DNA of 64,000 nucleotides, taken from Eretmocerus hayati. Lineage: Eukaryota; Arthropoda; Insecta; Hymenoptera; Aphelinidae. The position numbers and the translations under genes were made by a program. The stretch is from positions 64,056,454 through 64,120,453 of the forward strand of contig CM056742.1 of NCBI GenBank assembly GCA_029851415.1, written 5' to 3'. This document shows, one piece after another, positions 17,301 through 53,327 of the stretch; positions within the stretch are counted from its first letter, which is position 1; each line of letters begins with the position of its first letter. Under the pieces are notes generated by a model. It saw only the letters and a program-made list of their open reading frames with translations, was not told the origin of the DNA and did no database searches.

Positions 17301-17622
17301 GAGAGAAATTCTCCATTATTTTTATACGTTCCTATCCCACTCCACCGAGCTGTGGTTTCCCCCCCAAATCCTCATTCGGTGTCACTATATCGCCTTCCGG
17401 TTCTGCAGGTGATCTAGTGGAATTAGTACGTGTGCAAGTTCGCCCACCGGAAAAGACGCCCTACTCATCGCATCAATTGACAAATCCCATCTATACTCGC
17501 GTCAATCATCAGGGCAACGTGGTGCAATGCTTGTCTCTGTCTACTTGTCTGCTCTGCAGATTCGCGACAGGATGATGGCACCACAATAGCGTGCGCATCT
17601 TCGCTAAAGCTATGGTTATACT
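17301..17622. other. Flank between transposon and LTR element; left TACT duplication
   Basis: Non-repetitive sequence with no recognised gene. Its last four bases, TACT at 17,619-17,622, are the left copy of the target-site duplication of the LTR retrotransposon; the right copy is at 55,342-55,345. Confidence 0.6.
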
Positions 17623-18946
17623 TGTAACGTGGCAAATGAGATTACCTATCACACTCATTTATTTTTAGAAGGACTCATACCCTAGACGCAAATTCTCTCG
17701 CACTATGGAGACACGACTTCGAAATCTCGGGAACTCTGCTCTCTGCAACTCTCATTCACTTACCGTTATTCACCTAAAAAGTCAAGATAGAAAAGAAAGG
17801 GGTAGGGGCGCACGCGTTCGAAATAACCCAGTCCAAATTTATAATGAAACAACCTCGGCATATATTCGACAACGTTCCTTTTTTGCGGCGATACATGAAA
17901 TTATCCATATCGTAAATACTGGACCATCTCAAAAACTGACTAGAGTCTCCAAACTGGAAATGTCTGGATAATCGATAAATATTCAATAACTGTCTTTCTA
18001 TTATCCCTGGAATTACAATAGAGAGAAACACTAAACTGTCTGGCACACTATCTCGGCAAGAATTGGGACTCCAAAATTGGGTGAAGCACGCTGCTCCGAA
18101 GCAATCTCAAAATGGCTGCTCCGCGGCAATTTCCACGCCGCGCTCACGACGCGAGGCAAGATGGCTATCTGCCTACACACGGATTCACACCCCTGATTTT
18201 GGTGATCACGACACGCCCGCGACTGCTGGGGTGTGCTGGAGTCTCGGCAAATTTTTCAGGGTGCACTCCAGCACCATCAGTCTCCCCAGGAGTCTGGTTC
18301 GGCAAGCCCGACGATGGCAAGTACGCGCGCACAAGGCCCTCGAGGGACGCGCGGAAGAATTCACCAATTATTATGAATGATCAAGACCACTCACCGCTGA
18401 TATGTGACATCCAGGCAATCCTTGTTATAAATCCTGGACTCCCTTCAATCTATTTGATAGTCGACTCTCGTCGAGTGCGCAACCCGGGACTCTTGGGGGG
18501 CTCACGGCAAAACTTTGGAGCACGAGGCAAAAGCACAAGAAAACGTCTGGTCACTTCTGTGGCAATCCAACAAGTGTCGCAATGGCCGGCTTCCTGCCGG
18601 CAGAAGCTCTTCTTCTTCTTCAATAAATGAAGCTCTCTAATTGGTCGGCAGCGAGAATTTTGATTGGCCCTCAAAATCCGCGAGAAACTGACATTGCCCT
18701 CTGGTGGCCGTGGCGCGGCAAATTATGGAACATGCGTTCGAGCGCAAGGCAGCAAATCGGCACAAGATACAAAATTCACGGCAGGAATCTACCTAATTGT
18801 GGGTACGGCACTGTGTTCTTGCCTCCACCAGTTACTTATTCCATCTCACTCGCACCCACGGCAAGCATATGTAAGCGTAGAGGCTCTGCGCGACTGGCTG
18901 TTGCCTCCACTCTTCGTACCTTCACTGCATGCAATCAGGCACACGA

Positions 18947-18949: not shown

Positions 18950-18980
<31 letters not shown>
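18950..18980. repeat. (TA)n tract at left insertion junction
   Basis: A pure TA dinucleotide run of about 31 bp. A similar run lies at 40,400-40,433, at the other edge of the inserted block. The two probably derive from one TA tract in the LTR. Confidence 0.9.
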
Positions 18981-18984
<4 letters not shown>

Positions 18985-18988
18985 GTAA

Positions 18989-19163
18989 CGTGACTATTGA
19001 ACACTTTCGGAAAATCATCTATATTGATCGGGAAAGTCATATATTGGCTTAAGAGGGTCTGATTACCCATCAGATCAAATATTGTTGCAGTATATGGCGT
19101 TTTTTCATATATAGATGCGATTTCAAAATTTTTTTGGAAAATTCGATCGTGACTATTGAACAC
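18989..19163 (+). repeat. Left-end CGTGACTATTGAACAC boxes
   Basis: Two direct copies of the 16-bp box, at 18,989-19,004 and 19,148-19,163. The second is extended to a 20-bp perfect match with the right end. The first is only 8 bases from the TA tract. Repeated end boxes suggest protein-binding sites (inference). Confidence 0.8.
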
Positions 19164-20930
19164 TCTAGAACTGTTGATATCCATGGCCTCCATTCCGATG
19201 GAAATGATGATTGAAGGGAGTGCTAGGTTTCAAGTTACCCGACTTTCCATCGATGAAGTTCATCAGGAAGCTGGAAAAAGGTTGAGCATGCCAATTTTGA
19301 TCGAAACAATGATGAGTAAATCTCACGCCAAGTTTTGTAACCGTCGATCACAATCATCGGAGCTCAGGAAATGGCTTCTGGGTTGCTTGGTAACTTTTGT
19401 TTTCCACGATGCATACTTGAAGTTTCGCTCATGAAATTACATACCCACGAGACCCTGTTGAAAACGAGGGGACGCTGAATCACGCATAAGGCGTCATAAT
19501 TGAGTTGCAAGCACCCGGCAAAACTGTTGATAATAATGAGCATTGTTGTAGCCAACCATGCGAGATGATTGATTGTAGCTATGTTAGCTTACCAAATTGA
19601 TTGATGATGATTTGGTCCCGACCCGGTAGCCAACCTCCCAATCCAAAATTTCCACTCAACGACCCAGAGATTGTTCTGGACTCTCTTGTGCGAGCCTCGC
19701 TTCATCCCTGTTACCGGGACCTCGTCAGCTTCCCCAGACAATATGGCTGCCTGTCCCGCAAGCGAAAGTGGTTTGGAGGAGGAAAACTTGTTTCGCGCTG
19801 GCGCATCACAAATCGAACATGAATCCGCACCATGGTGCGTGGTGAAGCGGCGCTCGACGCTGCGGTGCAAATCTGCACAACAGTCCGCCAGCTCTGCACC
19901 ACAGTCTGCCAGTTATGCACGACGAGGTCGGATAGCCATATATATGCACAACAGTGTAAACGTGCACCACGCCCGTTCGAGAAAAATACTGCGTATGTCC
20001 TTCCGGTGTAGAGTTAACGCGAGAGCAAGCAAGAAAGAAGAGAATAATTAACAAAAGCGCAATTTGGCAGCGCAATTCATTGATAATCTTGCTAATCAGG
20101 ATTGTGAGCGCAATCGCTTGATACACTGAATTTATTCAACTGGATAAAAGCATTCAAATAACTAATAACTGAGGTGTCATCTTCACACATTTGATGGATA
20201 ACAAGTTGTGGTGATAAAGCTACAACAGATGTCATAGGCTGGGAGAAGAGCGTGGAAGAATTATCTACATATAAATGACGAGAAAAGCACTCTTCCTAAC
20301 AGGAATTTCTACACCAAGAATTCCTCTTGATGTACTGGAATTGCAATAACGAGTAAAAACTAAATTGTTGTGATGATACATTCTGAATAGAGTCATATTT
20401 GTCGAGATATATTTTGTAATACGAGAGATTCGCAAGCAGGAATCCAATCACAACTCCGATGAAGGGAATAAGAATTGTAGTTACGAATCAGTTATGGAAA
20501 TCGCGTGACGAATACTTGTACAACTAACAAAATCTGAGTGTCCTTCGATTCATGAGTAACAAGAGTGATAAATTTATGAGTTTCAATATCTCCTCCTTTA
20601 GTTCTTAGGCTAGGAAACATCCCAGGAGCAAGAAAACTCTCTGAATTGTATCAGTTACAAATAAGTTCAAATAATGTTTCAACTACAAAATATTAATGAC
20701 AGTATACCTATATATGTTTGTCATTACTTTTCAATCTTTTTTCTCCACCAAAGTTGACAAGGCAAGAACTCTACAAGACAAATTTGACATATTTTTAGAT
20801 GAGATGAAGAGTTTCTGAGTCATTGAAAAGCCACTACTGGGTTGGATTTGAAAATGTTCCAGATACAGTTCGATTGTGGTGAGAGCGGTAACACTGACAA
20901 AGAACGTCGTCGTTTCCCGTAACACCATAC
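19164..20930. other. Left shoulder of the inserted block, no gene recognised
   Basis: Non-satellite sequence between the end boxes and the array. Frames at 19,156-19,434 (+), 19,671-20,051 (+) and 19,806-20,126 (-) overlap each other and show no domain. An imperfect tandem pair with the core cagtccgccag / cagtctgccag lies at 19,872-19,920. A TATATAT string lies at about 19,940 in a GC-richer context, so an old promoter or LTR fragment is possible but unproven. Confidence 0.4.
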
Positions 20931-23900
20931 TATTTTCGGAGTTATCATTCATCATCCAGAATCCTGTTACACAGTATTCCACCGTATCTCCCAGTGCTTC
21001 CCAGCAGCGGATGAGCCTGTAACGCGCCTGAGCTAGTTCCTCGTTAATGTCCAATATTCGATACAGTATTCGGATTTTCGTGCATGTTTTGGAGTTTCGT
21101 CATACAATATTCAGCGGTATACCACGCCCCCACTATGGAACGAATCGCGAAACACAGACAAACAGAGGAGATGAATTCAAGGAGTCGGTGAATACGTTCC
21201 GTTGAGGCCGACGTTCCCGGGATCCTCTCCGGAAATAGCAGTTCAAATACCATGATCGATTCCGGAAGAAAGAGCCTCGAGGACGAGCTTGCTCCATGCG
21301 CATCTTCGTAGCTCAATATAGTATTCGGAGTCCACGAATTCGACTAGAACTCACATCATACAATATTCCGCCGTATCTCCTGGTGCCTTGGAGGGGAGAG
21401 AATCGAATCACGGATCATGGGTGAGCACAAAATTCAGGTTTAGGGAGATAGAGGAAGAGCTTGCTCGATATCCAACTCCGTAGTTATATACAGTATTTGG
21501 AGTTCTCAAGAAGATTCAAATGCTCAACATTCAGTATTCAGACGTATCTTAAGAGGCTCTGACCGGCGGAAGGGACCTCTCGACGAATCCGCAATAGATC
21601 GTCATAAGAACACGCAGTTGATCAACCATCACGCCGCGTCAGACAGAATAGCCTCGACAGTGAGCTTGCTTCACATCGATTCGCGTAACTCATTGCTGTA
21701 TTCGGAGTTCTTAAATATCGGTTAAACTTTCATTATACAGTATTCAATGGTATCTCGGACTCTAAACAGGCAACGAAGTCGTCTCACGCCCACGGATGAG
21801 CACAAGAGCTGCACTCAAGGTCTTCATAGTTTTGTTCTGATCAAAACGACCTCGCCGGGCTCCTCCTTGGAAAATAGCAGTCGATACCATCGGCCGCGTC
21901 AGAGGAAAGAGCGTCGAGGCTGAATTTGCTTCATGTTTATCCAGGTAGCTCAATACAGTGATCGGTGTTCTCAAATATAACTAAACCTCACCATACAGTA
22001 TTCCGCCGTATCTTACGACGTCCTGACAGGGAAATCAGACTTCAACGTGATTCAGTGATAGATTGATCTAAGAATACGCAAAGATCGACCGACAGCCGTT
22101 CCACACAATATAGCCCTGAGAGTGAGCCGGATAACGTCATTTTCCGTAATTCTATACGGTATTCGAACTTTCAACGATCATTCAAGCCCTCGTTATACAG
22201 TATTCGACGGTATTTTAGGCCCCAACCAGGGAACGAAATCGATCCACGAATAAAGGATGGACGTACGAGGGGAAATCGAGAGCGTCATAGTTTTGTTCTG
22301 TTCAAAACAACCTCGTCAGAATTCTCCATGGGGAATAGCAGTTGATGTACCACAAGCCGCTCCCGACAGAAGTGCCTCGAGAATGATGTTGCTCAATGAC
22401 CATCTCTGTAGTTCAATACAGTATTTGGAGATCTCGAGAAGATTCGAATGCTCAATATACAGTATCCGGACGTATTTCAAGAGGCTCTGACCGGCGGAAG
22501 GGACCTCTCGACGAATCCGCAATAGATCGTCATAAGAACACGCAGTTGATCAACCATCACGCCGCGTCAGACAATATAGCCCCGAGAGTGAGTTTGCTTC
22601 ACATCGATTCACGTAACACTTCCTATCCGGAGTTGTCATTTATCGTTCAAACCCTCATTTTAAAATATTCGACAGTATTTCGGACCCCAACCGAGCAACA
22701 AAGTCAATCACGCTCACGGATGAGCACAAGAGATGCACTCAATGTCTTCATAGTTTTGTTCTAATCAATACAGTCTTGCCGAAAACCTCCTTGGAAAATA
22801 GCAATCGATACCATCAGCCGCTCCGGAGATGAGAGCGTCGAGGATGAGTTTGCTCCATGTCCATCCCCGTAGCTCAATACATTATTCGGGGTTCCCAAAT
22901 GTGACTAAACCTCACTTAAGAGTATTCCGCCGTATCTCACGAGGTCCCGACAAGCGAATCAGACTTCATCGTGATTCAGTGATAGATTGATCCGAGAATA
23001 CGCAGACATCGACCACCAGCCGTTCCACACGGAATAGCCCTGAAAGTGAGCCAGCTAACGTCATTTTCCATAATTCTATACAGTATTCGGAGTTGTCATC
23101 GAACATTCAAACTTTCGTTATAGAGTACTAGACGGTATCTTAGGCACCAATCAGGGAACGAAATAGAAAAACCAATCGCGGATGAACTTCCAAAGTGCAC
23201 TTGAGGGAATCGTAGTTTTTATCCGATCAAAACGACCTCGTCGAAATCCTCCATGGGAGATAGCAGTTGATGTACCACATGCCGCTCGAAACAATGGAGC
23301 CTCGAGGCTGAGCTTGCCCCATGTCCATCACCGTAGTTCAATACTGTATTTGAAGTTCTGAATAAGATTCGAATGCTCAACATACAGTATCGAGACGTAT
23401 CTTAAGAGGCTCTGACCGGCAAATGGGACCTCACAACAAATCAGCGATAGATCGTCATGAAAACACGCAGTTGATCAACCATCACGCATCGTCAGACAAT
23501 ATAGCCCCGAGAGTGAGCTTGCTCAACATCGATTCACGTAACTCATTGCTGTATTCGGAGTTCTCATTTATCGTTCAAACTCCCACTATACAATATTCGA
23601 CAGTATTTCGGACCCCAACCGACCAACAAAGTCAAATCACGCTCACGGATGAACACAAGAGGTGCACTGAAGGTCTTCATAGTTTTGTTCTTATCGAAAC
23701 AACCTCGCCGGGAACCTCCTTGGAATAGAGCAGTCGAAACCATCATTCGCTTCGGAGATTAGAGCGTCAAGGATGAGTTTACTCCATGTCCATCTCCGTA
23801 GCTCAATATAGTATTCGTGTTTCTCAAATGTGACTAAACCTCACCATACCGTATCCCGCCGTATCTTACGTCGTCCCGACGAGCAAATCAGACTTCATCG

Positions 23901-26900
23901 TGATTCAACGATAGATGGATTTGAGGATACACCGTGATCGACCACCAGCCGTTTCACACAAAATAGCCCGGAGAGTGAGCCAGCTAACGTCATTCTTCAT
24001 AATTCTATACAGTATCCGGAGTTGTCATCGAACATTCAAACTCTCGTTATACAGTATTCAACGGTATCTTAACCCAGAACCACGGAACGGAATAGACTGA
24101 CCAATAACGGATGAACCCACGAGGTGCACTCAAGGGCATCATAGTTTTGTTCTGTTCAGAACCACCTCGTCAGAATCCTCCATGGGAGATAGCAGTTGAT
24201 GTACCACAAGCCGCTCCCGACAAAAGTGCCTCGAGAATGATGTTGCTCAATGACCATCCCCGTAGCTCAATACAGTATTGGTGGTTCTCAAATGTGACTA
24301 AACCTCACCATACAGTATCCCGCCGTATCTTACGTCGTCCCGACAAGCGAATCAGACTTCATCGTGATTCAACGATAGATGGATTTGAGGATACACCGTG
24401 ATCGACCACCAGCCGTTTCACACAATATAGCCCTGAGGGTGAGCGAGCTAACGTCATTTCCCGTAATTCTATACAGTATTCGAAGTTGTCTTCGAACATT
24501 CAAACTTTCATTATACAGTATTCGACGGTATCTTAACCCAGAACCACGGAACGAAATAGACTGACCAATAACGGATGAACCTACGAGGTGCACTCAAGGG
24601 CATCATAGTTTTGTTCTGTTCACAACAACCTCGTCAGAATCCTCCATGGGGACTAGCGTTTGATGTACCACAAGCCACTCCAGACAATAGAGCCTCGAGG
24701 CTGAGCTCGCGCCATGTCCATTCCCGTAGTTCAATACAGTATGTGGAGTTCTCAAGAAGATTCGAATGCTCAACATACAGTATTTGGACGTATCTTGAAA
24801 GGCTTTGCCCGGCAAATGAGACCTTTGAACAAATCAGCGATAGATCGTCATGATAACACGCAGTTGATCAACCATCACGCCGGGTCAAACAATATAGCCT
24901 CGAGAGTGAGCTGGCTCCACATCGATCCACGTAACTCATTCATGTATTCGGAGCTCTCAGAGATCGTTCAAACTGTCATTATACAGTATTCGACGGTATC
25001 TCGGACCCCAACCAGGCAACAAAGTCGACTCACGCGCACGGATAAGCACAAGAGATGCACTCAAGGTCTTTATAAATTTGTTTTAATCAGAACAACCTCG
25101 CCGGAAAAGTCCTGGTGAAATAGCAGTCGACACCATCAGCCGCTCAAGATATTGGAGCGTCAAGGATGACCTTGCTCCATGTCCATCCCCGTAGCTCAAT
25201 ACAGTATTCGGGGTTCTCGAAAGTGACTAAATCTCACCTCAGAGTTTCCCGCTGTATCTTACAAGGTCCCGACAAGCGAAACAGACTCCATCGTTATTCA
25301 GTGACAGATTAATCCGAGAATACGCAGAGATCGACCACCAGCCGTTCCACACAAAATAGCCCGGAGAGTGAGCCAGCTAACGTCATTTTCCATAATTCTA
25401 TACAGTATTCGGAGTTGTCATCGAACATTCAAACTTTCGTTATAGAGTTTCAGACGGTATCATAGGCCCCAATCAGGGAACGAACTAGACTAACCAATCA
25501 CGAATGAACTTTCGAGGTGCACTCGAGGGAATCGTAGTTTTTATCCGTTCAAAACCACCTCGTCAAAATCCTCCATGGGAGATAGCAGTTGATGTACCAC
25601 ATGCCGCTCAAGACAATGGAGCCTCGAGGCTGAGCTCACCCCATGTCCATCACCGTAGTTCAATACAGTATTTGGAGTTCTAAATAAGATTCGAATGCTC
25701 AACATACAGTATCCAGACGTATCTTAAGAGGCTCTGACCGGCAAATGGGACCTCACAACAATTCAGCGACAGATCGTCATGAATACACGCAGTTGATCAA
25801 CCATCACGCCCCGTCAGACAATATAGCCCCGAGAGTGAGCTTGCTTCACATCGATTCACGTAACTCATTGCTGTATTCGGGGTTCTCATTTATCGTTCAA
25901 ACTCCGTTCATACAATATTCGACAGTATTTCGGACCCCAACCGATCAACAAAGTCAAATCACGCTCACGGATGAGCACAAGAGGTGCACCGAAGGTCTTC
26001 ATAGTTTTGTTCTTATCGAAACAACCTCGCCGGGAACCTCCTTGGAATATAGCAGTCGAAACCATCATTCGATTCGGAGATAAGAGCGTCAAGGATAAGT
26101 TTACTCCATGTCCATCCCTCTAGCTCAATACAGTATCCGTGGTTCTGAGATGTGACTAAACCCCACCTAAGAGTAGTCCGCCGTATCTTACGAGGTCCCG
26201 ACAAGCGAATCAGACTTCATCGTGATTCAGTGATAGATTGATTCGAGGATACGCAGACATCGACCACCAGCCGTTCCACACAAAATAGCCCGGAGAGTGA
26301 GCCAGCAAACGTCATTTTTCATAATTCTATACAGTATTCGGAGTTGTCGTCGAACATTCAAACTTTCATTATACAGTATTCGACGGTATCTTAACCCAGA
26401 ACCACGGAACGAAATAGACTGACCAATAACGGATGAACCTACGAGGTGCTCTCAAGGGCATCACGGTTTCGTTCTGTCCAAAACAACCTCGTCAGAATCC
26501 TCCATGGAGAATAGCAGTTGATTTACCACAAGCTGCTCCAGACAATACAGTCTCGAGGCTGAGCTTGCCTCATATCCATCTTCGTAGTTCAATACATATT
26601 TGGAGTTCTCAAAAAGATTCGAATGCTCAACATACAGTATCCAGCCGTATCTTGAGAGGCTTCGACCGGCAAATGGGACCTCACAACGAATCAGCGATAG
26701 ATCGTCATGGAAAAACGCACTTGATCAACCATCACCCCGCGTCAGACAATATAGCCTCGAGAGTGAGCGTGCTTCAAATCGATTCACATAACTCATTACT
26801 GTATTCGGAGCTCTCATTAATCGATCAAACTCTCATTATACTGGATTCGACGTTATCTCGGACACCAACCATGCAACAAAGTCGACTCATGCTCACAGAT

Positions 26901-27081
26901 GAGCGCAGGGAGTGCACTCAAGGTCTTCATAGTTTTTTTCTCATCAAACCAACCTCGTCAGAATCCTCTATGGAAAAAAGCAGTTGATACCATCGGCCGC
27001 TCCAGAGAGTAGAGCGTCGAGGATGAGTTTCCTTCATGTTCATCCCCGTAGCTCAATACAGTATTCGGTGTTCTTAAATAT

Positions 27082-27100
27082 GAGAAAAATCAGTTGACGT
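27082..27100. repeat. Unequal-exchange junction in the satellite
   Basis: At about 27,082 a unit jumps from ttcttaaatatga directly to gaaaaatcagttgacgtacc, skipping most of a half-unit pair found at this point in other repeats. The break marks the left edge of the well-ordered higher-order region. It is most simply explained by unequal crossing-over or a deletion between units. Confidence 0.6.
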
Positions 27101-27508
27101 ACCACAAGCCAATTCAGACCATAGAGTCTCGAGGCTAAGCTTGCCCCATGTCCATCGCCGTAAATCGATACAGTATTTGAAGGTATCAGAAAGACTCAAA
27201 TGCTCATCATACAGTATTCAGCTGTATCTTAAGAGCCCTGACCGGCTATTCAGACTTCACAATGAATCTATCATAAATTCCCTCGAGAACACGCAGTCCA
27301 TCGACCATCAGCCGCTACAGACGATAGAGCGTCGAGAGTGAGCTTGCTCTACGCCAACTTCCGTCACTCAATACAGTATTCAGAGTTCTCAAATATCATC
27401 CAACCTTGCGCTATACAGTATTCGGCGGTATCTTGAGCCCCAAACAGACATTGAAATTGACTCACGAGTCACGGAAGAGCGCAGGAGGTGCACTCAAGGT
27501 CTTCATAG

Positions 27509-30500
27509 TTGAGTTCTCATCAAACCAACCTCGTCAGAGTCCTCTATGGTAAAAAGCAGTTGATACCATCGGCCGCTTCAGAGAGTAGAGCGTCGAGGAT
27601 GAGTTTCCTCCATGTTCATCCCCGTAACTCAATACAGTATTCGGTGTTCTTAAATATGACTAAACCTCACCATACAGTATTCCGCCGTATCTTACGAAGT
27701 CCCGACAAGCCAATCAGTTTCCATCGCGATCCAGTGATAGATTGATTCGAGGATACGCAGTGATCGATCACCAGCCGTTTTACACAATATAAGCCTGAGT
27801 GTGAGCCAGTTAACGTCATTTTCCGTAATTCTATATAGTATTTGGAGTTGTCGTTGATCTTTCAAACTTTCATTATACAGTATTCGACGGTGTCTTAGGC
27901 CCGAATCAGGGAACGGAATCGATCCACGAATCATGGATGTACATACGAGGTGCACTCGAGGGCATGATAGTTTTTTTCCGTTCAAAACAAGCTCGTCAGA
28001 ATCCTCCATGAGAAAAATCAGTTGACGTACCACAAGCCAATCCAGACCATAGAGTCTCGAGGCTAAGCTTACCCCATGTCCATCGCCGTAGTTCGATACA
28101 GTATTTGAAGGTATCAGAAAGACTCAAATGCTCATCATACAGTATTCAGCCGTATCTTAAGAGCCCTGACCGGCTATTCAGACTTCACAATGAATCTGTC
28201 ATAGATTGCCTCGAGAACACGCAGTCAATCGACCATCAGCCGCTACAGACGATAGAGCGTCGAGAGTGAGCTGGCTCTACGCCAACTTCCGTCACTCAAT
28301 ACAGTATTCAGAGTTCTCAAATATCATCCAAACCTGCGCTATACAGTATTCGGCGGTATCTTGAGCCCCAAACAGACATTGAAATTGACTCACGAGTCAC
28401 GGATGAGCGCAGGAGGTGCACTCAAGGTCTTCATAGTTGAGTTCTCATCAAACCCACCTCGTCAGAGTCCTCTATGGTAGAAAGCAGTTGATACCATCGG
28501 CCGCTCCAGAGAGTAGAGCGTCGAGGATGAGTTTCCTTCATGTTCATCCCCGTAACTCAATACAGTATTCGGTGTTCTCAAATATGACTAAACCTCACCA
28601 TACAGTATTCCGCCGTTCCTTACGAAGTCCCGACAAGCAAGTGAGACTTGATCGTGATTCGGTGATAGATTGATCTGAGAATACGCAGAGATCGAAAGCC
28701 AGCCGTTTTACACAATATAGCCCTGAGAGTGAGCCAGTTAACGTTATTTTCCGTAATTCTATACAGTATTTGGAGTTGTCAACGATCATCCAAATCCTCG
28801 TTATACAGTGTTCGACGGTATCTTAGGCCCCATTCAGAAAACGGAATTGATCCACGAATCAAGGACGGACGTACGAGGTGCACTCGAGACCATCATAGTT
28901 TTGTTCTGTTCAAAACAGCCTCGTCAGAATCCTCCACGTGAAATAGCAGTTGATGTACCGCAAGCCGCTCCGGACAATCGAGCCTCGAAAGTGAGCTTGC
29001 TTCACATCGATTCACGTAATTCATCACTGTATTCGGGGTTCTCACTTATCGTCCAAACTTCCATTATACAGTATTCGACGGTGTCTCGGACCCCAACCAG
29101 GCAACGAAGTCGACTCACGCCCACGGATGAGCAAAAGAGCTGCAATCAAGGGCTTCATAGTTGTGTTATCATCAAAACAACCTCGCCGGAATCCTCCTTA
29201 GAAAATAGCAGTCGATACCATCGGCCGATTCGGAGGAAAGAGCGTCGAGGAAGAGTTCCCTTCATGTTCATCCCCGTAGCTCAATACAGTATTCGGAATT
29301 CACAAATATGACTAAACCTCACCATACAGTATTCCGCCGTATCTTACGAAGTCCCAACAAGCCAATCAGACTCCATTGCGATTCACTGATAGATTGATTT
29401 GAGGATACGCAGTGATCGATCGACAGCCGTTTCACACAATATAGCCCTGAGAGTGAGCCAGCTAACGTCATTTTCCGTAATTCCATACAGTATTCGGAGT
29501 TGTCAATGATCTCTCAAACTTTCGTTATACAGTATTCGACGGTGTCTTAGGCCCGAATCAGGAAACGGAATCGATCCACGAATCATGGATGTACATACGA
29601 GGTGCACTCGAGGGCATGATAGTTTTTTCCCGTTCAAAACAACCTCGTCAGAATCCTTCATGAGAAGAATCAGTTGACGTACCACAAGCCACTTCAGACA
29701 ATAGATTCTCGAGGCTAAGCTTGCCCCATGTCCATCTCCGTAGTTCAATACAGTATTCGAAGGTATCAGAAAGACTCAAATGCTCATCATACAGTATTCA
29801 GCCGTACCTTGAATGCCCTGACCGGCGAATCAGACTTCACAACGAATCAGTCGTAGATTGCCTCGAGAACACGCGGTCAATCGACCATCAGCCGGTACAG
29901 ACGATGGAGCGTTGAGAGTGAGCTGGCTCTACGCCAACTTCCGTCACTCAATACAGTATTCAGAGTTCTCAAATATCATCCAAACTTGCGCTATACAGTA
30001 TTCGGCGGTATCTTGAGCCCCAAACAGACATTGAAATTGACTCACGAGTCACGGATGAGCGCAGGAGGTGCACTCAAGGTCTTCATAGTTGAGTTCTCAT
30101 CAAACCAACCTCGTCAGAGTCCTCTATGGAAAAAAGCAGTTGATACCATCGGCCGCTCCAGAGAGTGGAGCGTCGAGGATGAGTTTCCTCCATGTTCATC
30201 CCCGTAACTCAATACAGTATTCGGTGTTCTCAAATATGACTAGACCTCACCATACAGTATTCCGCCGTATCTTACGAAGTCACGACAAGCCAATCAGTTT
30301 CCATTGCGATCCAGTGATAGATTGATTCGAGGATACGCAGTGATCGATCACCAGCCGTTTTACACAATATAGCCCTGAGAGTGAGCCAGCTAACGTAATT
30401 TCCCGTAATTCCATACAGTATTCGGAGTTGTCGTTGATCTTTCAAACTTTCGTTATACAGTATTCGACGGTGTCTTAGGCCCGAATCAGGGAACGGAATC

Positions 30501-33500
30501 GATCCACGAATCATGGATGTACATACGAGGTGCACTCGAGGGCATGATAGTTTTTTTCCGTTCAAAACAACCTCGTCAGAATCCTCCATGAGAAAAATCA
30601 GTTGACGTACCACAAGCCAATCCAGACCATAGAGTCTCGAGGCTAAGCTTACCCCATGTCCATCGCCGTAGTTCGATACAGTATTTGAAGGTATCAGAAA
30701 GACTCAAATGCTCATCATACAGTATTCAGCCGTATCTTAAGAGCCCTGACCAGCTATTCAGACTTCACAACGAACTGTCATAGATTGCCTCGAGTACACG
30801 CAGTCAATCGACCATCAGCCGCTACAGACGATAGAGCGTCGAGAGTGAGCTGGCTCTACGCCAACTTCCGTCACTCAATACAGTATTCAGAGTTCTCAAA
30901 TATCATCCAAACTTGCGCTATACAGTATTCGGCGGTATCTTGAGCGTCAAACAGACATTGAAATTGAATCACGAGTCACGGATGAGCGCAGGAGGTGCAC
31001 TCAAGGTCTTCATAGTTGAGTTCTCATCAAACCCACCTCGTCAGAGTCCTCTATGGTAGAAAGCAGTTGATACCATCGGCCGCTTCAGAGAGTAGAGCGT
31101 CGAGGATGAGTTTCCTTCATGTTCATCCCCGTAACTCAATACAGTATTCGGTGTTCTCAAATATGACTAAACCTCACCATACAGTATTCCGCCGTTTCTT
31201 ACGAAGTCCCGACAAGCCAATCAGTTTCCATTGCGATCCAGTGATAGATTGATTCGAGGATACGCAGTGATCGATCACCAGCCATTTTACACAATATAGC
31301 CCTGAGAGTGAGCCAGTTAACGTCATCTTCCGTAATTCTATACAGCATTTGGAGTTGTCAACGATCATTCAAACTTTCGTTATACAGTATTCGACGGTGT
31401 CTTAGGCCCGAATCAGGAAACGGAATCGATCCACGAATCATGGATGTACATACGAGGTGCACTCGAGACCATCATAGTTTTGTTCTGTTCAAAACAGCCT
31501 CGTCAGAATCCTCCACGTGAAATAGCAGTTGATGTACCGCAAGCCGCTCTAGACAATCGAGCCTCGAAAGTGAGCTTGCTTCACATCGATTCACGTAATT
31601 CATCACTGTATTCGGAGTTCTCACTCATCGTCCAAACTTCCATTATACAGTATTCGACGGTATCTCGGACCCCAACCAGGCAACGAAGTCGACTCACGCC
31701 CACGGATGAGCAGGAGAGCTGCAATCAAGGGCTTCATAGTTTTGTTATAATCAAAACAACCTCGCCGGAATCCTCCTTAGAAAATAGCAGTCGATACCAT
31801 CGGCCGATTCGGAGGAAAGAGCGTCGAGGAAGAGTTCCCTTCATGTTCATCCCCGTAGCTCAATAATGTATTCGGTGTTCTCAAATATGACTAAACCTCA
31901 CCATACAGTATTCCGCCGTATCTTACGAAGTCCCAACAAGCCAATCAGACTCCATCGCGATTCAGTGATAGATTGATTTGAGGATACGCAGTGATCGATC
32001 ACCAGCCGTTTCACACAATATAGCCCTGAGAGTGAGAGAGCTAACGTCATTTTCCGTAATTCCATACAGTATTCGGAGTTGTCAATGATCTCTCAAACTT
32101 TCGTTATACAGTATTCGACGGTGTCTTAGGCCCGAATCAGGAAACGGAATCGATCCACGAATCATGGATGTACATACGAGGTGCACTCGAGGGCATGATA
32201 GTTTTTTCCCGTTCAAAACAACCTCGTCAGAATCCTTCATGAGAAAAATCAGTTGACGTACCACGAGCCAATTCAGACCATAGAGTCTCGAGGCTAAGCT
32301 TGCCCCATGTCCATCGCCGTAGTTCGATACAGTATTTGAAGGTATCAGAAAGACTCGAATGCTCATCATACAGTATTCAGCCGTATCTTAAGAGCCCTGA
32401 CCGGCTATTCAGACTTCACAATGAATCTGTCATAGATTGCCTCGAGAACACGCAGTCAGTCGACCATCAGCCGCTACAGACGATAGAGCGTCGAGAGTGA
32501 GCTGGCTCTACGCCAACTTCCGTCACTCAATACAGTATTCAGAGTTCTCAAATATCATCCAAACATGCGCTATACAGTATTCGGCGGTATCTTGAGCCCC
32601 AAACAGACATTGAAATTTACTCACGAGTCACGGATGAGCGCAGGAGGTGCACTCAAGGTCTTCATAGTTGAGTTCTCATCAAACCAACCTCGTCAGAGTC
32701 CTCTATGGAAAAAAGCAGTTGATACCATCGGCCGCTCCAGAGAGTGGAGCGTCGAGGATGAGTTTCCTCCATGTTCATCCCCGTAACTCAATACAGTATT
32801 CGGTGTTCTCAAATATGACTAGACCTCACCATACAGTATTCCGCCGTATCTTACGAAGTCCCGACAAGCCAATCAGTTTCCATTGCAATCCAGTGATAGA
32901 TTGATTCGAGGATACGCAGTGATCGATCACCAGCCATTTTACACAATATAGCCCTGAGAGTGAGCCAGCTAACGTCATTTCCCGTAATTCCATACAGTAT
33001 TCGGAGTTGTCGTTGATCTTTCAAACTCTCGTTATACAGTATTCGACGGTGTCTTAGGCCCGAATCAGGAAACGGAATCGATCCACGAATCATGGATGTA
33101 CATACGAGGTGCACTCGAGACCATCATAGTTTTGTTCTGTTCAAAACAGCCTCGTCAGAATCCTCCACGTGAAATAGCAGTTGATGTACCGCAAGCCGCT
33201 CTAGACAATCGAGCCTCGAAAGTGAGCTTGCTTCACATCGATTCACGTAATTCATCACTGTATTCGGAGTTCTCACTCATCGTCCAAACTTCCATTATAC
33301 AGTATTCGACGGTATCTCGGACCCCAACCAGGCAACGAAGTCGACTCACGCCCACGGATGAGCAGGAGAGCTGCAATCAAGGGCTTCATAGTTTTGTTAT
33401 AATCAAAACAACCTCGCCGGAATCCTCCTTAGAAAATAGCAGTCGATACCATCGGCCGATTCGGAGGAAAGAGCGTCGAGGAAGAGTTCCCTTCATGTTC

Positions 33501-36070
33501 ATCCCCGTAGCTCAATAATGTATTCGGTGTTCTCAAATATGACTAAACCTCACCATACAGTATTCCGCCGTATCTTACGAAGTCCCGACAAGCCAATCAG
33601 ACCTCATCGCGATCTGGTGATAGATTGATTCGAGGATACGCAGTGATCGACCGCCAGCCGTTTTACACAATATAGCCCTGAGAGTGAGCCAGTTAACGTC
33701 ATCTTCCGTAATTCTATACAGTATTTGGAGTTGTCAACGATCATTCAAACCCTCGTCATACAGTGTTCGACGGTATCTAACCCCCAATCAGGAAACGAAA
33801 TCGCTCCACGTATCATGGATGTACACAGGAGGTGCACTCGAGGGCATGATAGTTTTTGTTCCGTTCAAAACAACCTCGTCAGAATCCTTCATGAGAAGAA
33901 TCAGTTGACGTACCACAAGCCAATTCAGACCATAGAGTCTCGAGGCTAAGCTTGCTCCATGTCCATCGCCGTAGTTCGATACAGTATTTGAAGGTATCAG
34001 AAAGACTCAAATGCTCATCATACAGTATTCAGCCGTATCTTAAGAGCCCTGACCGGCTATTCAGACTTCACAATGAATCTGTCATAGATTGCCTCGAGAA
34101 CACGCAGTCAATCGACCATCAGCCGCTACAGACGATAGAGCGTCGAGATAGAGCTGGCTCTACGCCAACTTCCGTCACTCAATACAGTATTCAGAGTTCT
34201 CAAGTATCATCCAAACTTGCGCTATACAGTATTCGGCGGTATCTTGAGCCCCAAACAGACATTGAAATTGAATCACGAGTCACGGATGAGCGCAGGAGGT
34301 GCACTCAAGGTCTTCATAGTTGAGTTCTCATCAAACCAACCTCGTCAGAGTCCTCTATGGAAAAAAGCAGTTGATACCATCGGCCGCTCCAGAGAGTGGA
34401 GCGTCGAGGATGAGTTTCCTCCTTGTTCATCCTCGTAACTCAATACAGTATTCGGTGTTCTCAAATATGACTAAAACTCACCATACAGTATTCCGCCGTC
34501 TCTTACGAAGTCCCGACAAGCCAATCAGACTCCATCGCGATCCAGTGATAGATTGATTCGAGGATACGCAGTGATCGACCGCCAGCCGTTTTACACAATA
34601 TAGCCCTGAGAGTGAGCCAGTTAACGCCATCTTCCGTAATTCTATACAGTATTTGGAGTTGTCAACGATCATTCAAACCCTCGTCATACAGTGTTCGACT
34701 GTATCTTAGGCCCCATTCAGGAAATGAAATTGATCCACGAATCAAGGACGGACGTACGAGGTGCACTCGAGACCATCATAGTTTTGTTCTGTTCAAAACA
34801 ACCTCGTCAGAATCCTCCACGTGAAATAGCAGTTGATGTACCGCAAGCCGCTCCAGACAATCGAGCCTCGAGGGTGAGCTTTCTTTACATCGATTCACGT
34901 AATCCATCACTGGATTCGGAGTTCTTACTTATCGTTCAAACTTCCATCATACAGTATTCGACGGTATCTCGGACCCCAACCAGCCAACGAATTCGACTTA
35001 CGCCCACGGATGAGCAAAAGAGCTGCAATCAAGGGCTTCATAGTTTTGTTATAATCAAAACAACCTCGCCGGAATCCTCCTTAGAAAATAGCAGTCGATA
35101 CCATCGGCCGCTCCGGAGGAAAGAGCGTCGAGAATGAGTTTCCTTCATGTTCATCCCCGTAGCTCAATACAGTATTCGGTGTTCTCAAATATGACTAAAC
35201 CTCACCATACAGTATTCTGCCGTATCTTACGACGTCCCGACAAGCAAATCAGACTTCATCTTGATCCAGTGATAGATTGATTTGAGGATACGCAGTGATC
35301 GGCCACCACCCGTTTCGTACAATATAGCCCTGAGAATCAGCCAAGTAACGTATTTTCCGTAATTCAATACAGTATTCGGAGTTGTCAACGATCATTCAAA
35401 CTTTCGTTATACAGTATTCGACGGTATCTCAGGCCCCAATCAGGAAACGAAATTGATCCACGAATCAAGGACGGACGTACGAGGTGCACTCGAGGGAATC
35501 ATAGTTTCGTTCTGTTCAAAACAACCTCGTCAGAATACTCCATGGAAAATAGCAGTTGATGTATCACAAGCCGCTCCAGACGATAGAGTCTCGAGGCTGA
35601 GCTTGCCTCATGTCCATCTTTGTAGTTCAATACAGTATTTGGAGTTCTCAGGAAGATTCGAATGCTCAACATACAGTATTTAGACGTATCTTAGAAGGCT
35701 TCGACCGGCAAATGGGACCTCACAACGAATCAGCGATAGATCGTCATGAAAAAACGCAGTTGATCAACCATCACGCCGCGTCAGACAATATAGCCTCGAG
35801 AGTGAGCTTGCTTCACATCGATTCACGTAACTCATTACTGTATTCGGGATTCTCATTCATCGTTCAAACTCTCATTATACAGTATTCGACGGTATCTCGG
35901 ATCTCAACCAGGCAACGAAGTCGACTCTAGCTCACGGATGAGCACAAAAGCTGCACTCAAGGTCTTCATAGTTTTGTTCTAATCGAACAGCCTCGCCGGA
36001 ATCCTCCTTGGAGGATAGCAGTCGATACCATCGGCCGCTTCAGAGAGTAGAGCGTCGAAGATGAGTTTGC
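27509..36070. repeat. Higher-order repeats of 2,579 and 1,652 bp
   Basis: Matching landmarks recur at 27,509, 30,089 and 32,668 (offset about 2,579) and at 28,437 and 31,016 (2,579). A shorter offset of 1,652 links 31,444 with 33,096 and 32,668 with 34,320. The difference, 927 bp, is two basic units, so the shorter form lacks one unit pair. Copies within this region are far more alike than neighbouring basic units, which is the definition of a higher-order satellite. Confidence 0.85.
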
Positions 36071-37597
36071 TCCATGTTCATCCCCGTAGCTCAATGCAGT
36101 ATCCGATGTCCTCAAATATGACTAAACCTCACCATACAGAATTCCGCCGTATCTTACGAAGTCCCGACAAGCAAGTCAGACTCCATCGTGATTCAGTGAT
36201 AGATTGATTCGAGGATAGGCGGTGATCGACCACCAGCCGTTCCACACAATATAGCCCTGAGAGTGAGCCAGCTAACGTCATTTTCCGTAATTCTATACAG
36301 TATCCGGAGTTGTCAACGATCTTTCAAACTTTCGTTATACAGTATTCGACGGTATCTTAGGCCCCAATCAGGAAACGAAATCGCTCCACGTATCATGGAT
36401 GTACATACGAGGTGCACTCGAGGGCATGATAGTTTTTTTTTCGTTCAAAACAACCCCGTCAGAGTCCTTCATGGAAAATAGCAGTTGATGTACCACAAGC
36501 CACTTCAGACAATAGATTCTCGAGGCCAAGCTTGCCCCATGTCCATCTCCGTAGTTCAATACAGTATTCGAAGGTATCAGAAAGACTCAAATGCTCATCA
36601 TACAGTATTCAGCCGTATCTTAAGAACCCTGACCGGCGAATCAGACTTCACAACGAATCAGTCATAGATTGCCTCGAGAACACGCGGTCAATCGACCATC
36701 ATCCGGTACAGACGATGGAGCGTTGAGAGTGAGCTGGCTCTACGCCAACTTCCGTAACTCAATACAGTATTCAGAGTTCTCAAATATCATCCAAACTTGC
36801 GTTATACAGTATTCGGCGGTATCTTGAGCCCCAAACAGACATCGAAACAGACTCACGAGTCACGAATGAGCACTGCAGGTGAACTCGAGGTTTTCATAGT
36901 TTAGTTCCATTCGAAACAACTTCGTCGGAATCCTGCTCGGGAGATAGCAGTTCATTCCATCAATAGCTCCAAAGAATAGAGCCTCGAGTATAAGCTTCCT
37001 GCATGTCCATACACGTAGGTCAATACAGTATTCGGAGTTCTCAAATATGACTCAAATTCACTCCATACAGTATTCCGCCGTATCCTACGAGGTTCAGATC
37101 AACAAATGAGACTTCATCGCGAATCAGTGATAGATTGCCTCAAGAACACGCAGTAGATCGACCATCAGCCATTCAACATAATATAGCTTCGAGATTGAGC
37201 TTCCTCTACGCCGATTCCCGTAACGCCATGATGTATTCGGTCTTTTCAAATACCATCCAAACTTCCATTATACCGTATTCGACGGTATCTTTGGCCCCAA
37301 TCAGGCCACGAAATCGACTCACAAATGACGGTTGAGCACAAGAGGCGCACTCAGGGTCTCCATAGTTTTGTTTTGTCCAAAACAACCTCGTCGGTATCCT
37401 CCTTGGAAGATAGCAGTTCATACCATTAGCCGCTCATGAGGATAGAGCTTCGAGGATGAGCTTGCTCTATGTCCATCCCCGTAGCTCAATACAGTATTCG
37501 GAGGTCTGAAAATGATTCATGCGCTCATCATACAGTATTCTGCCGTGTTTTTAGAGACCCTGATCGGCGAATGAGACCTCACAACGATCCAATGGTA

Positions 37598-38152
37598 CAC
37601 TGTAAAAAATATTTAGTGAATCTTACTGTGACACAGTGATAATACACTATGAATTACAACATTGATTGAGGTGAATTCACTACGGTTGAGTGAAAACGCA
37701 ACAATCAATGTGGGTCCTGAATTGTTACAACATTGAATGATGCGATTTTACCGTGCCGAATGTAAAGTTATAAGCGGGTATGCGCGCGGTGCTGCGGTTC
37801 GGCGTTCACCAAAAATACGACTGATCCTGCACGCTCCTGCATTGTTGCTCAGACAGCTCAATCGGAATTAATAAACTCGATCCCTGTAACAGTTCTTATC
37901 GATTTCAACAATATTTTAGTTTAGAAATTGTACACTAATCGACGCGGAAAGATAATTTGAAACCTAACCTCAAATATGCCGTTTGCTTGTAGCAGAACAC
38001 TCGCGGACATGTAAAATCACACTCTCAGAGTGGATGATTCCTCTACCATAGGGTAAACTCACTACAATCAATGTTGTAACAATTCAGGACCCACAATGAA
38101 TGTGGTGATTCTACTTTGTAGTTGCGATTCTCACGAGATTGTTTTTACAGTG
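37598..38152. mobile_element. 555-bp TA-flanked MITE inside the satellite
   Basis: Ends CACTGTAAAAA and TTTTTACAGTG are complements, flanked by TA at 37,596-37,597 and 38,153-38,154. Internal stretches (gtgggtcctgaattgttacaa and its complement) show that the inverted repeats extend deep into the element. Removing it restores a normal satellite unit (...aatggTAgttcgcctcgag). TA duplications fit the Tc1/mariner group. No open frame of interest is present. Confidence 0.85.
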
Positions 38153-39265
38153 TAGTTCGCCTCGAGAACACGCAGTGGATCGACCATCAGCCGCTTCTGA
38201 CAATATATCATCAAGAGTGAGCTGGCTCTACGTCGATTTTCGTCATTCATTACTGTATTCTGAGTTCTCAAATATCATCCAAACTTCCATTATATAGTTT
38301 TTCAGGGTATCTCGAACCTCAACCAGTCAAAGAAATCGACTTACGCTCCCGGATGAGTACAGGAGGCTCACTCAAAGTCTTTATATTTTCGTTCTGTCCA
38401 AAACAACCTCGTCGGAATTCTCCTTGGAAAATAGCAATGGTTACCATAATCGGCTCCAGAAAATAGAGCCTCGAGGATGAGCTTTCTGCATGTCCATCCA
38501 CGTAGGTCAATACAGTATTTGGAGTTCTCAAATATGACTCAAATTCACTCCATACAGTATTCCGCCGTATCTTACGAGGTCCCGATCAACAAATGAGACT
38601 TTGTCGCGAATCAGTAATAGATTGCCTCGAGAACACGCAGTAGATCGACCATCAGCCGTTCTACACAATATAGCTTCGAGAGTGAGCTTGCTTTACGCAG
38701 ATCCCCGTAACGCCATGATGAATTCGCTATTCTCAAATATCATTCAAACTTCCATTGAACAGTATTCGATGGTATCTTTGGCCCCAACCAGGCAACGAAA
38801 TCGACTTAGGCTCAAGGATGAGCACAGGAGGTGCACTTATGTCTTCATAGTTTCGTTCTGTCCAAAACAACTCCGTCGGAATCCTTCTTGGAAAGTAACA
38901 GTTGTTACCTCAAGCGGCTCCAGAGAATGGAGCCTCCAGGATGAGCTTTCTCCATGTCCGTCCCCGCAGCTCAATACAGTATTTGGACGTCTCAAAATGA
39001 CTTCAACACTCATCATAAGTATTCCGCCGTATCTTTAAAGGCCCTGACTGGCGAATGAGACCTCATAACGAATTAGTCATAGATCGCCTCGAGTTCACGC
39101 AGTCAATCAATAATCAGTTGCTTCAGACAGTTTAGCCTCGAGAATGAGCTGGCTTTACGCCAATCTTCGTAACTCAATATTGTCTCCGGAATACTGTATT
39201 CGCGACTCAAAATGATTCTGACTTGCGAATCACGAAAGAGCGCAAGGGGTGTACTGAAAAATTTC

Positions 39266-40275
39266 TTCGCATGATTGATGACAGATTATACTCTCTATGC
39301 AGGGACAAATGAATAAAATAGGCAAAGATGAGTGGGGTATCAATCTTCAGCTCCTGGATACTTTGATCTAAATCGTATTACTCTCCGCGATGATCGTCAT
39401 ATGTAAATGATATCGCGGAAGGATAATGACCGTTTCTAAGAAGGAGACATTCTTGTCACACTCTGTAAAGGATCTGATTTCTGCCATTCTTGATGAGCTG
39501 AAATTCTCGTTCGAGGGTCTGGGATATCCGGAGATATTCCGTGGAGCGTCCCTATGCAGTTTAGTGAAGACCCTCGATTTGTTTTCGTCCAAGAAAGTTG
39601 AGGACAAACCTCATTCACAGCCTTCTTGATGTACCGTTCCTGTTATTGAATCGACTCTCATATAGAGTTCCACCGTGCCCGGCGAATGCAAAAAACACAA
39701 TGAGTCAGACTCGTTGTTCAAAGAACATGCATGATTCCATCTCAGGTTTGCGTGGTCCCTTCAATTCACCATCACCGCAAGGTGACCAAAATAATCCATC
39801 TCGGATCGTTGCCACCATGCACTACTGGAGACGATGGACTCAAACACTGCTCTTCGCTTCATGTCAAGGTTTCCCGTCTACTTCAGTGGCGAGAAATTTC
39901 AATCACAGCTCGACACATCGTCATACAGTATTCCAGACATTCGTTCTGTAAATTAGTCGAGAGAATCAATTGCGATGAAGAGGTTCCTTCATCGCCGACG
40001 TAAACAGCTCAATTCAGTCTTCATAGTCCAATTTCGACACTCAATTGAACATTGTCTCACAGTATCTGGGAGTGGATCAAAAAGTATCGTGAAGAAAATG
40101 AACATTACCGGTTACGATTTTGCATGTGCTTCGTTGCACGGGTTTGGAGATTAATGTACTAAGTTGATTAAAACAATTGAGATCAAGGATACCCCAACGA
40201 GAAATATGGATTAGATAACGTCTCTGTTGTCAATCAATGGAGAGTGTTCAAAAAGTACGCTGTATATACTTGTTT
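39266..40275. other. Right shoulder of the inserted block, no gene recognised
   Basis: Non-satellite sequence. A plus-strand frame at 39,426-39,629 and overlapping frames at 39,598-40,003 look moderately protein-like in composition but contain no motif I recognise. One copy of the satellite box catacagtattcc occurs at about 39,924, so part of this shoulder may be very diverged satellite. Confidence 0.35.
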
Positions 40276-40397
40276 TATTGAACACGTGTTCAATAGTAAC
40301 GGTGCACGTACAGATTTATTGAACACGTGTTCAATAGTACGCAAAAGTGTTCAATAGTCACGGTAGGATGGAAAATGGGTGTTCAATAGTCACGATC

Positions 40398-40398
<1 letters not shown>
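40276..40398 (-). repeat. Right-end boxes and 20-bp palindromes
   Basis: The palindrome TATTGAACACGTGTTCAATA occurs at 40,276-40,295 and 40,317-40,336. The complement of CGTGACTATTGAACAC occurs at 40,347-40,362 and 40,379-40,394. All share the half-site TATTGAACAC, so six half-sites crowd into 120 bp next to the TA tract. The orientation is inverted relative to the left end. Confidence 0.85.

Positions 40399-40399
<1 letters not shown>

Positions 40400-40433
<34 letters not shown>
40400..40433. repeat. (TA)n tract at right insertion junction
   Basis: A pure TA run of about 34 bp, the counterpart of 18,950-18,980. Beyond it the sequence is LTR again. Confidence 0.9.
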
Positions 40434-40434
<1 letters not shown>

Positions 40435-41653
40435 TCGTCGCGGCAACGCTATACCTATATATGTACTCATCACGGCAATAATACCCACTCGCAGTCTGCC
40501 TAGGCAATCTCCTATATGCCCACACACATACATAATGACCGGTGGGTGTCGTCTGCATACCAAATTTTTCGCCCACCAGGCGATGTCCGGGTATCATCAG
40601 GGTCCCGGGTCGGCAAAGTGTGGTATAACCTACCCTGAGGTAGGTATACCCGTCGGCAGCGCCCTCGCGCCGGCAGCAACAACACGGCAGTGTGTCGTCT
40701 GCGCTAGCCCGCATGCATATCGTTTTCAGCGTCGTCGTGGCTCTCGAGATCACCCGGGTGTCTAGGTGTCATCGCGTGTGCTTGTCCGGGTGTGGGTAAC
40801 ACCCCTAGGTGCGTGCGCGATCGTGTGGATGTCGGCAGTGAGCTGGTGCATCTGGTGTACATGCAACAAAAGTTGCATGCCACCATAACCTTCAGCCAGC
40901 TGATCATAGAAATATAAGGGGCTATTTGCATATGGGGCAGCTGCCCGGATAGCAAATAGCCCGGTGGTGACTTTCCCAGGTGCAGGCATCATCGGCAAGG
41001 CTCCTGCATCGTCCCGTCGTCATCATCTCCTCGGCACCGCCCTGGCACACCCGAATCGGCAAAGGTGTGGTGGCTTCATGTGGCATGCAGGTGCGAAGTG
41101 CATACTCGTGATAGAACACTTATCATCGGGTGCACGGCTGTTGGAGGTGGGATATGGATGCAGCACGGTGCTTGCGGGCACCGGCTGTTACCATTTTCCA
41201 TCCCAAACACAGTATTTTAGTGCACAAGTGCAAATCGCGCCCGCCCTTACTCACCCGGGAGCAAGGGCCTCGGCAAAAACTCTTCGTGGCACGGGCCTCG
41301 GGCCCCTCCTGTGGTGCCGCGGGGTAGGTGTGCGTAGTGGTGGGCCCTGAAAGGGCGGAACCGCATCATGTTGCCCGGGTAGCCCGCCCTGGGCTTCACC
41401 AGTTGATGTCGTTGTGGAGATGACCACCAGCCTCCTAGAGGCTGGTGGTCGCGGCTAACTCAGGTGCAGGCCGGGTTGCCTGTCCCCAGGCATACCCGTA
41501 ATGACTCCTCTCCGCGGCATCGTCGTTGTCTCGATCTGCAGCACCTCGGAAAAAATACGTATTTTGCGTAAATACCTGTTTTTCCGAGGCTGCTGGCTCG
41601 AGGCACGACGAGAGAGATTTTCTTAATTCCCTCAAACGGCTGTGACGGTTTTA
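40434..41653 (-). repeat. 3' LTR, inner piece
   Basis: From about 40,625 (taacctaccctgaggtaggtatacccg) this follows the 5' LTR from 54,290 to 55,333, including cacccgggtgtctaggtgtcatcg and gtgacggtttta. The first 190 bp have no counterpart in the 5' LTR, which appears to have lost its middle. At the inner edge the 3' LTR reads ttttatctctcgg where the 5' LTR reads ttttaccgtcaca, so the expected CGTCACA end is missing. I see no clear polypurine tract next to it. Confidence 0.75.
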
Positions 41654-43492: not shown

Positions 43493-43562
43493 ACAGTAAC
43501 ATCAGACCCGTTATCGGTCCCATTGCGGCATGCAACACGGCATGCACCGTCACCAGGCAGAT

Positions 43563-45270: not shown

Positions 45271-45273
45271 TGG

Positions 45274-45888: not shown

Positions 45889-45912
45889 ATCTCGGAAATC
45901 TATACAAAACCG

Positions 45913-53326: not shown

Positions 53327-53327
53327 T

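What the first reader, a model, noticed from the sequence alone, without database searches (positions are those of the whole stretch)
18981..40399. A 21.4-kb satellite-bearing block with inverted end boxes sits inside one LTR
Two LTR pieces that together reconstitute one 3' LTR are separated by a 21.4-kb block flanked by (TA)n on both sides. The block's ends carry inverted copies of CGTGACTATTGAACAC, including a perfect 20-bp inverted pair (19,144-19,163 and 40,379-40,398). The interior is an 18-kb higher-order satellite. This looks like a satellite array that has moved as a unit into a TA site, possibly as a giant non-autonomous transposon. I see no gene for mobility, so the mechanism is open.
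Basis: partly seen in the sequence, partly recalled or inferred. Interest (0 to 1): 0.88.

Follow-up and report, generated by a model that had tools for sequence, protein, structure and literature searches.

The report
Giant jumping elements carrying satellite arrays
In a parasitic wasp genome, blocks of satellite DNA (roughly 13 to 45 thousand bases) sit at about thirty chromosomal places as transposon-like units with fixed ends beside TA repeats, which suggests a way for satellite DNA to move around a genome ready-made.

Summary
The 21.4-kb block is one copy of a dispersed family in (inferred) Eretmocerus hayati. The exact 16-bp box occurs 80 times in 692 Mb (reversed control 0), at 28 places: 23 A ends, 26 B ends, 22 paired copies of 12.6-44.8 kb. 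All aligned ends adjoin TA repeats, though the tract is short (6-8 bp) at 10 of 26 B ends. The 466-bp satellite was found at 27 of 28 places; the first 100 of 370 genomic hits of a satellite 18-mer lie inside copies, the other 270 were not listed. Copies E1 and E2, 16 Mb apart with unmatched flanks, share collinear stretches at about 98% in arms and array, so array blocks moved with the ends. Arrays also grew in place. A second family (three copies, one end seen) has related boxes, a TA flank and a different higher-order satellite. Best reading: giant non-autonomous TIR transposons with satellite cores, mobilised in trans. Transposase, target duplication and empty site are not shown.

The parts
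18950..18980 (.). (TA)n target tract, A side
   Evidence: all 23 A ends aligned adjoin a TA tract
18981..19004 (+). A terminus with first box CGTGACTATTGAACAC (terminal inverted repeat)
19144..19163 (+). second A box, 159 bp inside the first; this 20-bp stretch is the perfect inverted partner of 40379-40398
   Evidence: the 159-bp spacing recurs at most A ends, 177 in E17
18981..21094 (+). A arm, about 2.1 kb, 93-99% identical between seven copies
21095..39188 (+). satellite core: about 466-bp monomers, alternating types (period about 930), with one 521-bp non-matching block at 37603-38123
39189..40399 (+). B arm, about 1.2 kb, 95.7-99.7% identical between nine copies
40276..40301 (.). palindromic double box TATTGAACACGTGTTCAATA, part of a one-mismatch box
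40317..40342 (.). second palindromic double box
40347..40362 (-). inner B box
40379..40399 (-). outer B box and B terminus
40400..40433 (.). (TA)n target tract, B side
17622..18788 (-). part of the interrupted LTR (host site)
40624..41653 (-). remaining part of the interrupted LTR (host site)

Best explanation
The block is one copy of a family of giant non-autonomous DNA elements. Each has two unlike arms (A about 2.1 kb, B about 1.2 kb). Each arm ends in the same inverted box, repeated inside the arm as a likely recombinase-binding array, and between the arms lies a satellite core. A transposase supplied in trans is inferred to recognise the boxes, move the whole unit and insert it into TA repeats. 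After insertion the core grows and shrinks by multi-unit duplication or unequal exchange while arms and arm-proximal monomers stay fixed, so copy length varies 3.5-fold. Shown: dispersed copies, near-constant ends, TA flanks, array blocks carried with the ends, in-place amplification. Inferred: the enzyme, cut-and-paste chemistry, box function.
For: 80 exact boxes, reversed control 0, paired spans 12.6-44.8 kb. 23 A ends genome-wide at up to 3 mismatches, control 0. 23 A and 26 B ends aligned, all beside TA repeats. No blast match at 1e-5 among the outer flanks of the seven paired copies held in full. Satellite at 27 of 28 places; 0 of 2 control points. E2 against E1: 39 of 72 windows at >=97%, all 39 collinear, spread over both arms and array; E1 against E2: 44 of 131, 41 collinear. 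First 100 of 370 satellite 18-mer hits inside copies. Internal duplications of several monomers at 99-100% within copies. Family X: related boxes and TA flank with another satellite.
Against: No transposase was recognised; the arms were checked for ORFs only (longest 164 aa from ATG, in E1 and E2), not against protein libraries. No target-site duplication can be read inside TA repeats and no exact empty site was found. At 10 of 26 B ends the longest pure TA run nearby is only 6-8 bp, so the target may be looser than (TA)n, and the innermost TATAT may belong to the element. 33 of 72 windows of E2 have no >=97% counterpart in E1. E4 and its neighbour E4b share an interrupted TA tract beside the B end although the DNA beyond differs. 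Only the B end was used to look for relatives by DNA search. One place, E25, had no satellite at the sampled point.
Confidence: 0.82

Rival explanations
1. Circle model: the element leaves as a circle closed through its flanking TA tracts and re-enters another TA repeat by homologous recombination, with the boxes serving replication or excision rather than cut-and-paste. This resembles the circular model proposed for plant SaTar elements.
For: All aligned ends adjoin TA repeats; E4 and E4b share an interrupted TA tract, and a similar pattern is on E4's A side; the SaTar paper calls such a model speculative but possible for microsatellite-bound MULEs (section read).
Against: Ends are nearly constant to the base on both sides and inverted to each other, as expected of enzyme-cut ends; at 10 of 26 B ends little TA (6-8 bp) is available for recombination.
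Confidence: 0.15
2. Ordinary satellite dispersal by segmental duplication or array recombination, with the ends just conserved flanking DNA.
For: Arrays do undergo block duplication; copies cluster in chromosome centres (24 of 28 in the middle third).
Against: Homology stops at the same base beside TA repeats at the 49 aligned ends; outer flanks of the seven paired copies held in full have no match; copies lie on four chromosomes in both orientations.
Confidence: 0.03
3. Assembly artefact: collapsed or misjoined repeats at TA tracts.
For: Satellite plus (TA)n is hard to assemble; junctions were not checked with reads.
Against: Same junction architecture at many places with different flanks; the assembly is HiFi-based with contig N50 7.96 Mb (passages of PMC10482854).
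Confidence: 0.02
4. Remnant of an integrated large DNA virus or polydnavirus-like segment whose genes were lost and replaced by satellite.
For: Size range, and a parasitoid wasp host (recalled association only).
Against: No ORF over 164 aa from ATG in the arms of the copies checked; in the copies held in full the interior is satellite apart from the 521-bp block and the inserts of E3, E4 and E9. Arms were not searched against viral protein libraries.
Confidence: 0.02

Closest known systems
TA-microsatellite-targeting Mutator-like elements of plants: MuTAnT (PMC4486113, abstract and one section read) and SaTar (PMC5907723, abstract and two sections); TAFT/TAFTA only as cited there; Micron recalled
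   Same: MuTAnT: 204 of 218 copies in perfect (TA)n; non-autonomous copies with terminal inverted repeats; target duplication hidden in the microsatellite.
   Different: SaTar also uses other microsatellites and non-microsatellite sites. Here an animal; 12.6-44.8 kb; satellite core; no Mutator ends or transposase shown.
Tetris foldback transposon with TIR-220 repeats, Drosophila virilis (PMC4079207, abstract and one section read)
   Same: Non-autonomous DNA transposon whose internal tandem repeats expand to satellite-like arrays of up to 66 copies.
   Different: In Tetris repeats lie in the inverted repeats, and amplification may have disrupted the element; here a central one-strand array lies between intact ends and blocks of it moved with them.
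Helitron-associated satellites in Crassostrea gigas (PMC8268682, passages read)
   Same: Mobile element with conserved end boxes and central satellite monomers; satellite mostly element-bound and spread over chromosomes.
   Different: One such satellite averages about six monomers per array; maxima of 9 to 48 monomers are given for others, so monomer numbers can overlap with ours. Here both ends carry the same box inverted, beside TA repeats, with 466-bp monomers and copies of 12.6-44.8 kb.

Membership tests
Non-autonomous TIR DNA transposon (class II) | Dispersed copies with constant ends and unrelated flanks | tested here: met
   flanks compared for seven paired copies
Non-autonomous TIR DNA transposon (class II) | Inverted terminal sequences on the two ends | tested here: met
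   16-bp box on both ends; imperfect longer outer pair read by eye
Non-autonomous TIR DNA transposon (class II) | Target-site duplication of fixed length | tested here: inconclusive
   aligned ends adjoin TA repeats, so a duplication cannot be read
Non-autonomous TIR DNA transposon (class II) | Autonomous relative with a transposase and matching ends | tested here: inconclusive
   one search found family X with related boxes; the three ORFs of 120 aa or more in L084 have no Pfam match at 0.1; its far end was not read
Mutator-like (MULE), as in MuTAnT/SaTar | TA-microsatellite targeting | tested here: met
   with short tracts at 10 of 26 B ends
Mutator-like (MULE), as in MuTAnT/SaTar | 8-11 bp target duplication at non-microsatellite sites | tested here: inconclusive
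   no aligned end lay clear of TA repeats
Mutator-like (MULE), as in MuTAnT/SaTar | MULE transposase or TIR homology | not tested
   no transposase family was searched in the genome; a paper names E. hayati among species with complete MULE copies (one passage, PMC13359780)
Helitron/Helentron | No terminal inverted repeats | tested here: not met
   both ends carry the same box inverted
Tc1/mariner | TA target duplication with mariner-type transposase | tested here: inconclusive
   TA flanks fit, but a TA duplication cannot be told within TA repeats; no transposase seen
Classical satellite DNA | Large free-standing arrays | tested here: inconclusive
   370 hits of the 18-mer genome-wide, first 100 inside copies, the places of the other 270 not listed; the total fits the copies alone

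The most novel reading that the evidence does not exclude
There is a wider system of TA-targeting giant elements that share one end-box code and differ in their satellite core: at least two families, a 466-bp satellite (about 29 places) and a satellite with about 200/400-bp subunits and a 1.87-kb higher-order repeat (three copies, one end known). The satellite is a regular, perhaps selected part of the element, and such elements seed ready-made higher-order satellite arrays in chromosome centres, so satellites arise and spread as transposon cores.
Probability: 0.35. Interest if true: 0.9.

Novelty: new variant of a known kind. Interest (0 to 1): 0.76.

Why it matters
How satellite families reach many chromosomes is an old question. 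Here the arrays carry their own ends, so the same array can be followed between loci (E1 and E2) and in-place amplification told apart from movement. A model cited in PMC8268682 (passage) expects transposition to fade as internal repeats grow; copies of 12.6-44.8 kb with shared array blocks test that. If family X or a relative holds the enzyme, satellite mobility becomes experimentally tractable. The central clustering (24 of 28 places) raises a link to pericentromere formation that FISH or CENP-A mapping could test.

Tried and rejected
Rfam on the window at gathering scores: 0 matches. Pfam on seven window ORFs (two of them from the array): only RVT_1 in the LTR element. ORFs in the arms: short ones of about 65-83 aa recur in all or most of the seven A arms, as expected at 93-99% identity, and several recur in B arms; the longer ones (102-164 aa) are open in only some copies. 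They were not searched against libraries, so a small or spliced gene is not excluded. The other LTR copy as an empty site: rejected, it lacks the target stretch. E4's non-satellite insert (8.5 kb) as a transposase gene: no ORF over 150 aa in the 7.3 kb listed (L020); its last 1.3 kb was not listed. E9's 1.8-kb palindrome and E3's 0.9-kb insert look like nested elements. A motif shared by both satellites: 77 exact ATACAGTATTC in the window array but only 1 in 2.6 kb of family X's array, so not claimed. A first end alignment with loose patterns mixed inner and outer A boxes and was redone; I use only the B-end tract lengths. The clustering test was thought of after seeing the places and is not controlled for where TA repeats lie. 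Paper searches (0 papers) showed no report of this element in their listings (titles and starts of abstracts seen). Two E. hayati genome papers were searched for terms only ('satellite' 0 times in each main text).

Full report
WHERE IT IS. The window is C2:64056454-64120453 of a 692,130,109-base assembly with 17 contigs. Two proteins matching a window ORF are named Eretmocerus hayati and lie on contigs of 204,958,428 and 122,604,546 bases, the lengths of C1 and C4 here. The genome paper gives 692.1 Mb, four chromosomes, scaffold N50 192.5 Mb and HiFi data (passages, PMC10482854). The host is therefore, by inference, this whitefly parasitoid wasp.

OBSERVATION. The B side has more boxes than the A side: two palindromic double boxes and two single ones against two single ones. 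The interior is a one-strand tandem array from about 21.1 to 39.2 kb. The interrupted LTR is real, but the other LTR copy lacks about 370-400 bp at the site, so it is no exact empty site.

A FAMILY. The exact box occurs 80 times (43 forward, 37 reverse; reversed control 0), and I sort these into 28 places on four chromosomes. An A-end 29-mer with up to 3 mismatches occurs 23 times, control 0. I aligned 23 A ends and 26 B ends; all adjoin TA repeats and the terminal bases are nearly constant, with exceptions such as L031, L050, E2 and E5. At 10 of 26 B ends the longest pure TA run nearby is only 6-8 bp. 22 places have both sides, 12,628 to 44,801 bp, median about 21.8 kb, 527 kb in all; one of them, E26, has lost its outermost A end and is measured from its inner box. 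Two places are A-only and four B-only by the box. A search with 339 bp of the B end gave 47 matches: the 26 known B ends, one more truncated arm at C3:72965554, two fragments (one inside E19, one 17.7 kb from the A end of E16), 15 matches of the palindromic stretch on the other strand of known copies, and three matches of a second family. The outer flanks of the seven paired copies held in full (E1, E2, E3, E4, E6, E9 and the window) do not match each other at 1e-5.

CORE. All nine copies read at length (seven whole, two in part) carry the satellite. So do the smallest copy (10 kb of it read) and 17 of 18 further 1.2-kb samples; the exception is E25, a B-only place, and two control points had none. 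That makes 27 of 28 places. A satellite 18-mer present in 131 of 292 monomers occurs 140 times in the nine copies, 131 of them in the seven whole ones, about 19 each. In the genome it occurs 370 times; the first 100 places are listed and lie in copies, the other 270 are not listed. 22 copies at about 19 would give more than 370, so no large free array is needed.

MOVEMENT AND GROWTH. A arms are 93-99% and B arms 96-99.7% identical between copies. E1 and E2 (C1, 16 Mb apart, no flank match) share 39 of the 72 windows of E2 at 97% or more, all collinear, from the A end through parts of the array to the B end; the other 33 windows do not reach this, so the arrays have also turned over. Their common ancestor already had array blocks now present in both, so array moved with the ends. 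Other pairs share mainly arms and arm-proximal monomers. Within copies, runs of monomers are duplicated at 99-100%, for example in E6, E3 and E1. 24 of 28 places lie in the middle third of their chromosomes (binomial p 1.6e-8, post hoc); whether this is insertion bias or retention is unknown.

SECOND FAMILY (X). Three places on C3 match only the box stretch of the B end at 76%. They are 98.4-99.1% identical to each other over 4.2 to 9.1 kb, carry five box-like repeats, end beside TA repeats, and have different DNA beyond. Probes 12 kb further in are still 97% alike between two copies, so the element is at least about 21 kb. There the DNA is another tandem array: 2.6 kb with an internal 1.87-kb repeat at 97.4% and weaker repeats of about 800 and 400 bp; a motif recurs about every 200 bp. 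The tandem-repeat tool listed nothing within its 500-bp limit, and the 466-bp profile does not match. Its far end was not read, so calling it the partner or a sister family is inference.

MECHANISM. Near-constant ends, inverted boxes, unlike arms with box arrays and TA flanks fit a DNA transposon moved in trans (inference). No enzyme was recognised; the arms were checked for ORFs only. The circle model stays open, mainly for the shared interrupted TA tract of E4 and E4b.

NOVELTY. TA-targeting elements and transposons with internal satellite repeats are both known. The combination seen here, tens of kilobases of higher-order satellite between intact inverted ends, with blocks moved along with them, in an animal and with two satellites, did not appear in the listings of my paper searches. 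I rate it a strong new variant of a known kind.

Noticed in passing
window 9139-17150: An 8-kb element with inverted arms of about 2 kb (91-95% identical) and minus-strand ORFs; several relatives of one ORF carry the domain PF13359, and two are E. hayati hypothetical proteins.
   Followed up: partly
window 41632-55333 plus 17622-18788: LTR retrotransposon on the minus strand (RVT_1 at 45274-45912) whose LTR holds the block; its other LTR lacks the stretch around the insertion.
   Followed up: partly
window 56936-58257 and 59537-60425: Two inverted-repeat (foldback-like) stretches, arms 94% and 80% alike.
   Followed up: no
window 51717-53180: Short tandem arrays of about 31, 62 and 154 bp units inside the LTR element.
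   Followed up: no
L019-L022 (E4, E4b): Two nearby copies share an interrupted TA tract beside the B end though the DNA beyond differs; their B arms are 99.67% identical. Unexplained; may mean TA tracts travel with the element.
   Followed up: partly
E2/E26, E8/E20, E10/E18/E19 and E4b/E13/E17 flanks (L013-L014, L022, L029-L062): Several copies sit beside look-alike host repeats, seen by eye, suggesting that TA tracts of certain repeats are repeated targets.
   Followed up: no
L084-L093 (C3): Family X: giant elements of at least about 21 kb with related boxes and a different higher-order satellite. L087 is instead a truncated B arm of the first family.
   Followed up: partly
L020:2824-10000 and L021:1-1343 (E4); E9 and E3 inserts: Non-satellite inserts of 8.5, 1.8 and 0.9 kb inside copies; the E9 one is a long palindrome.
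   Followed up: partly
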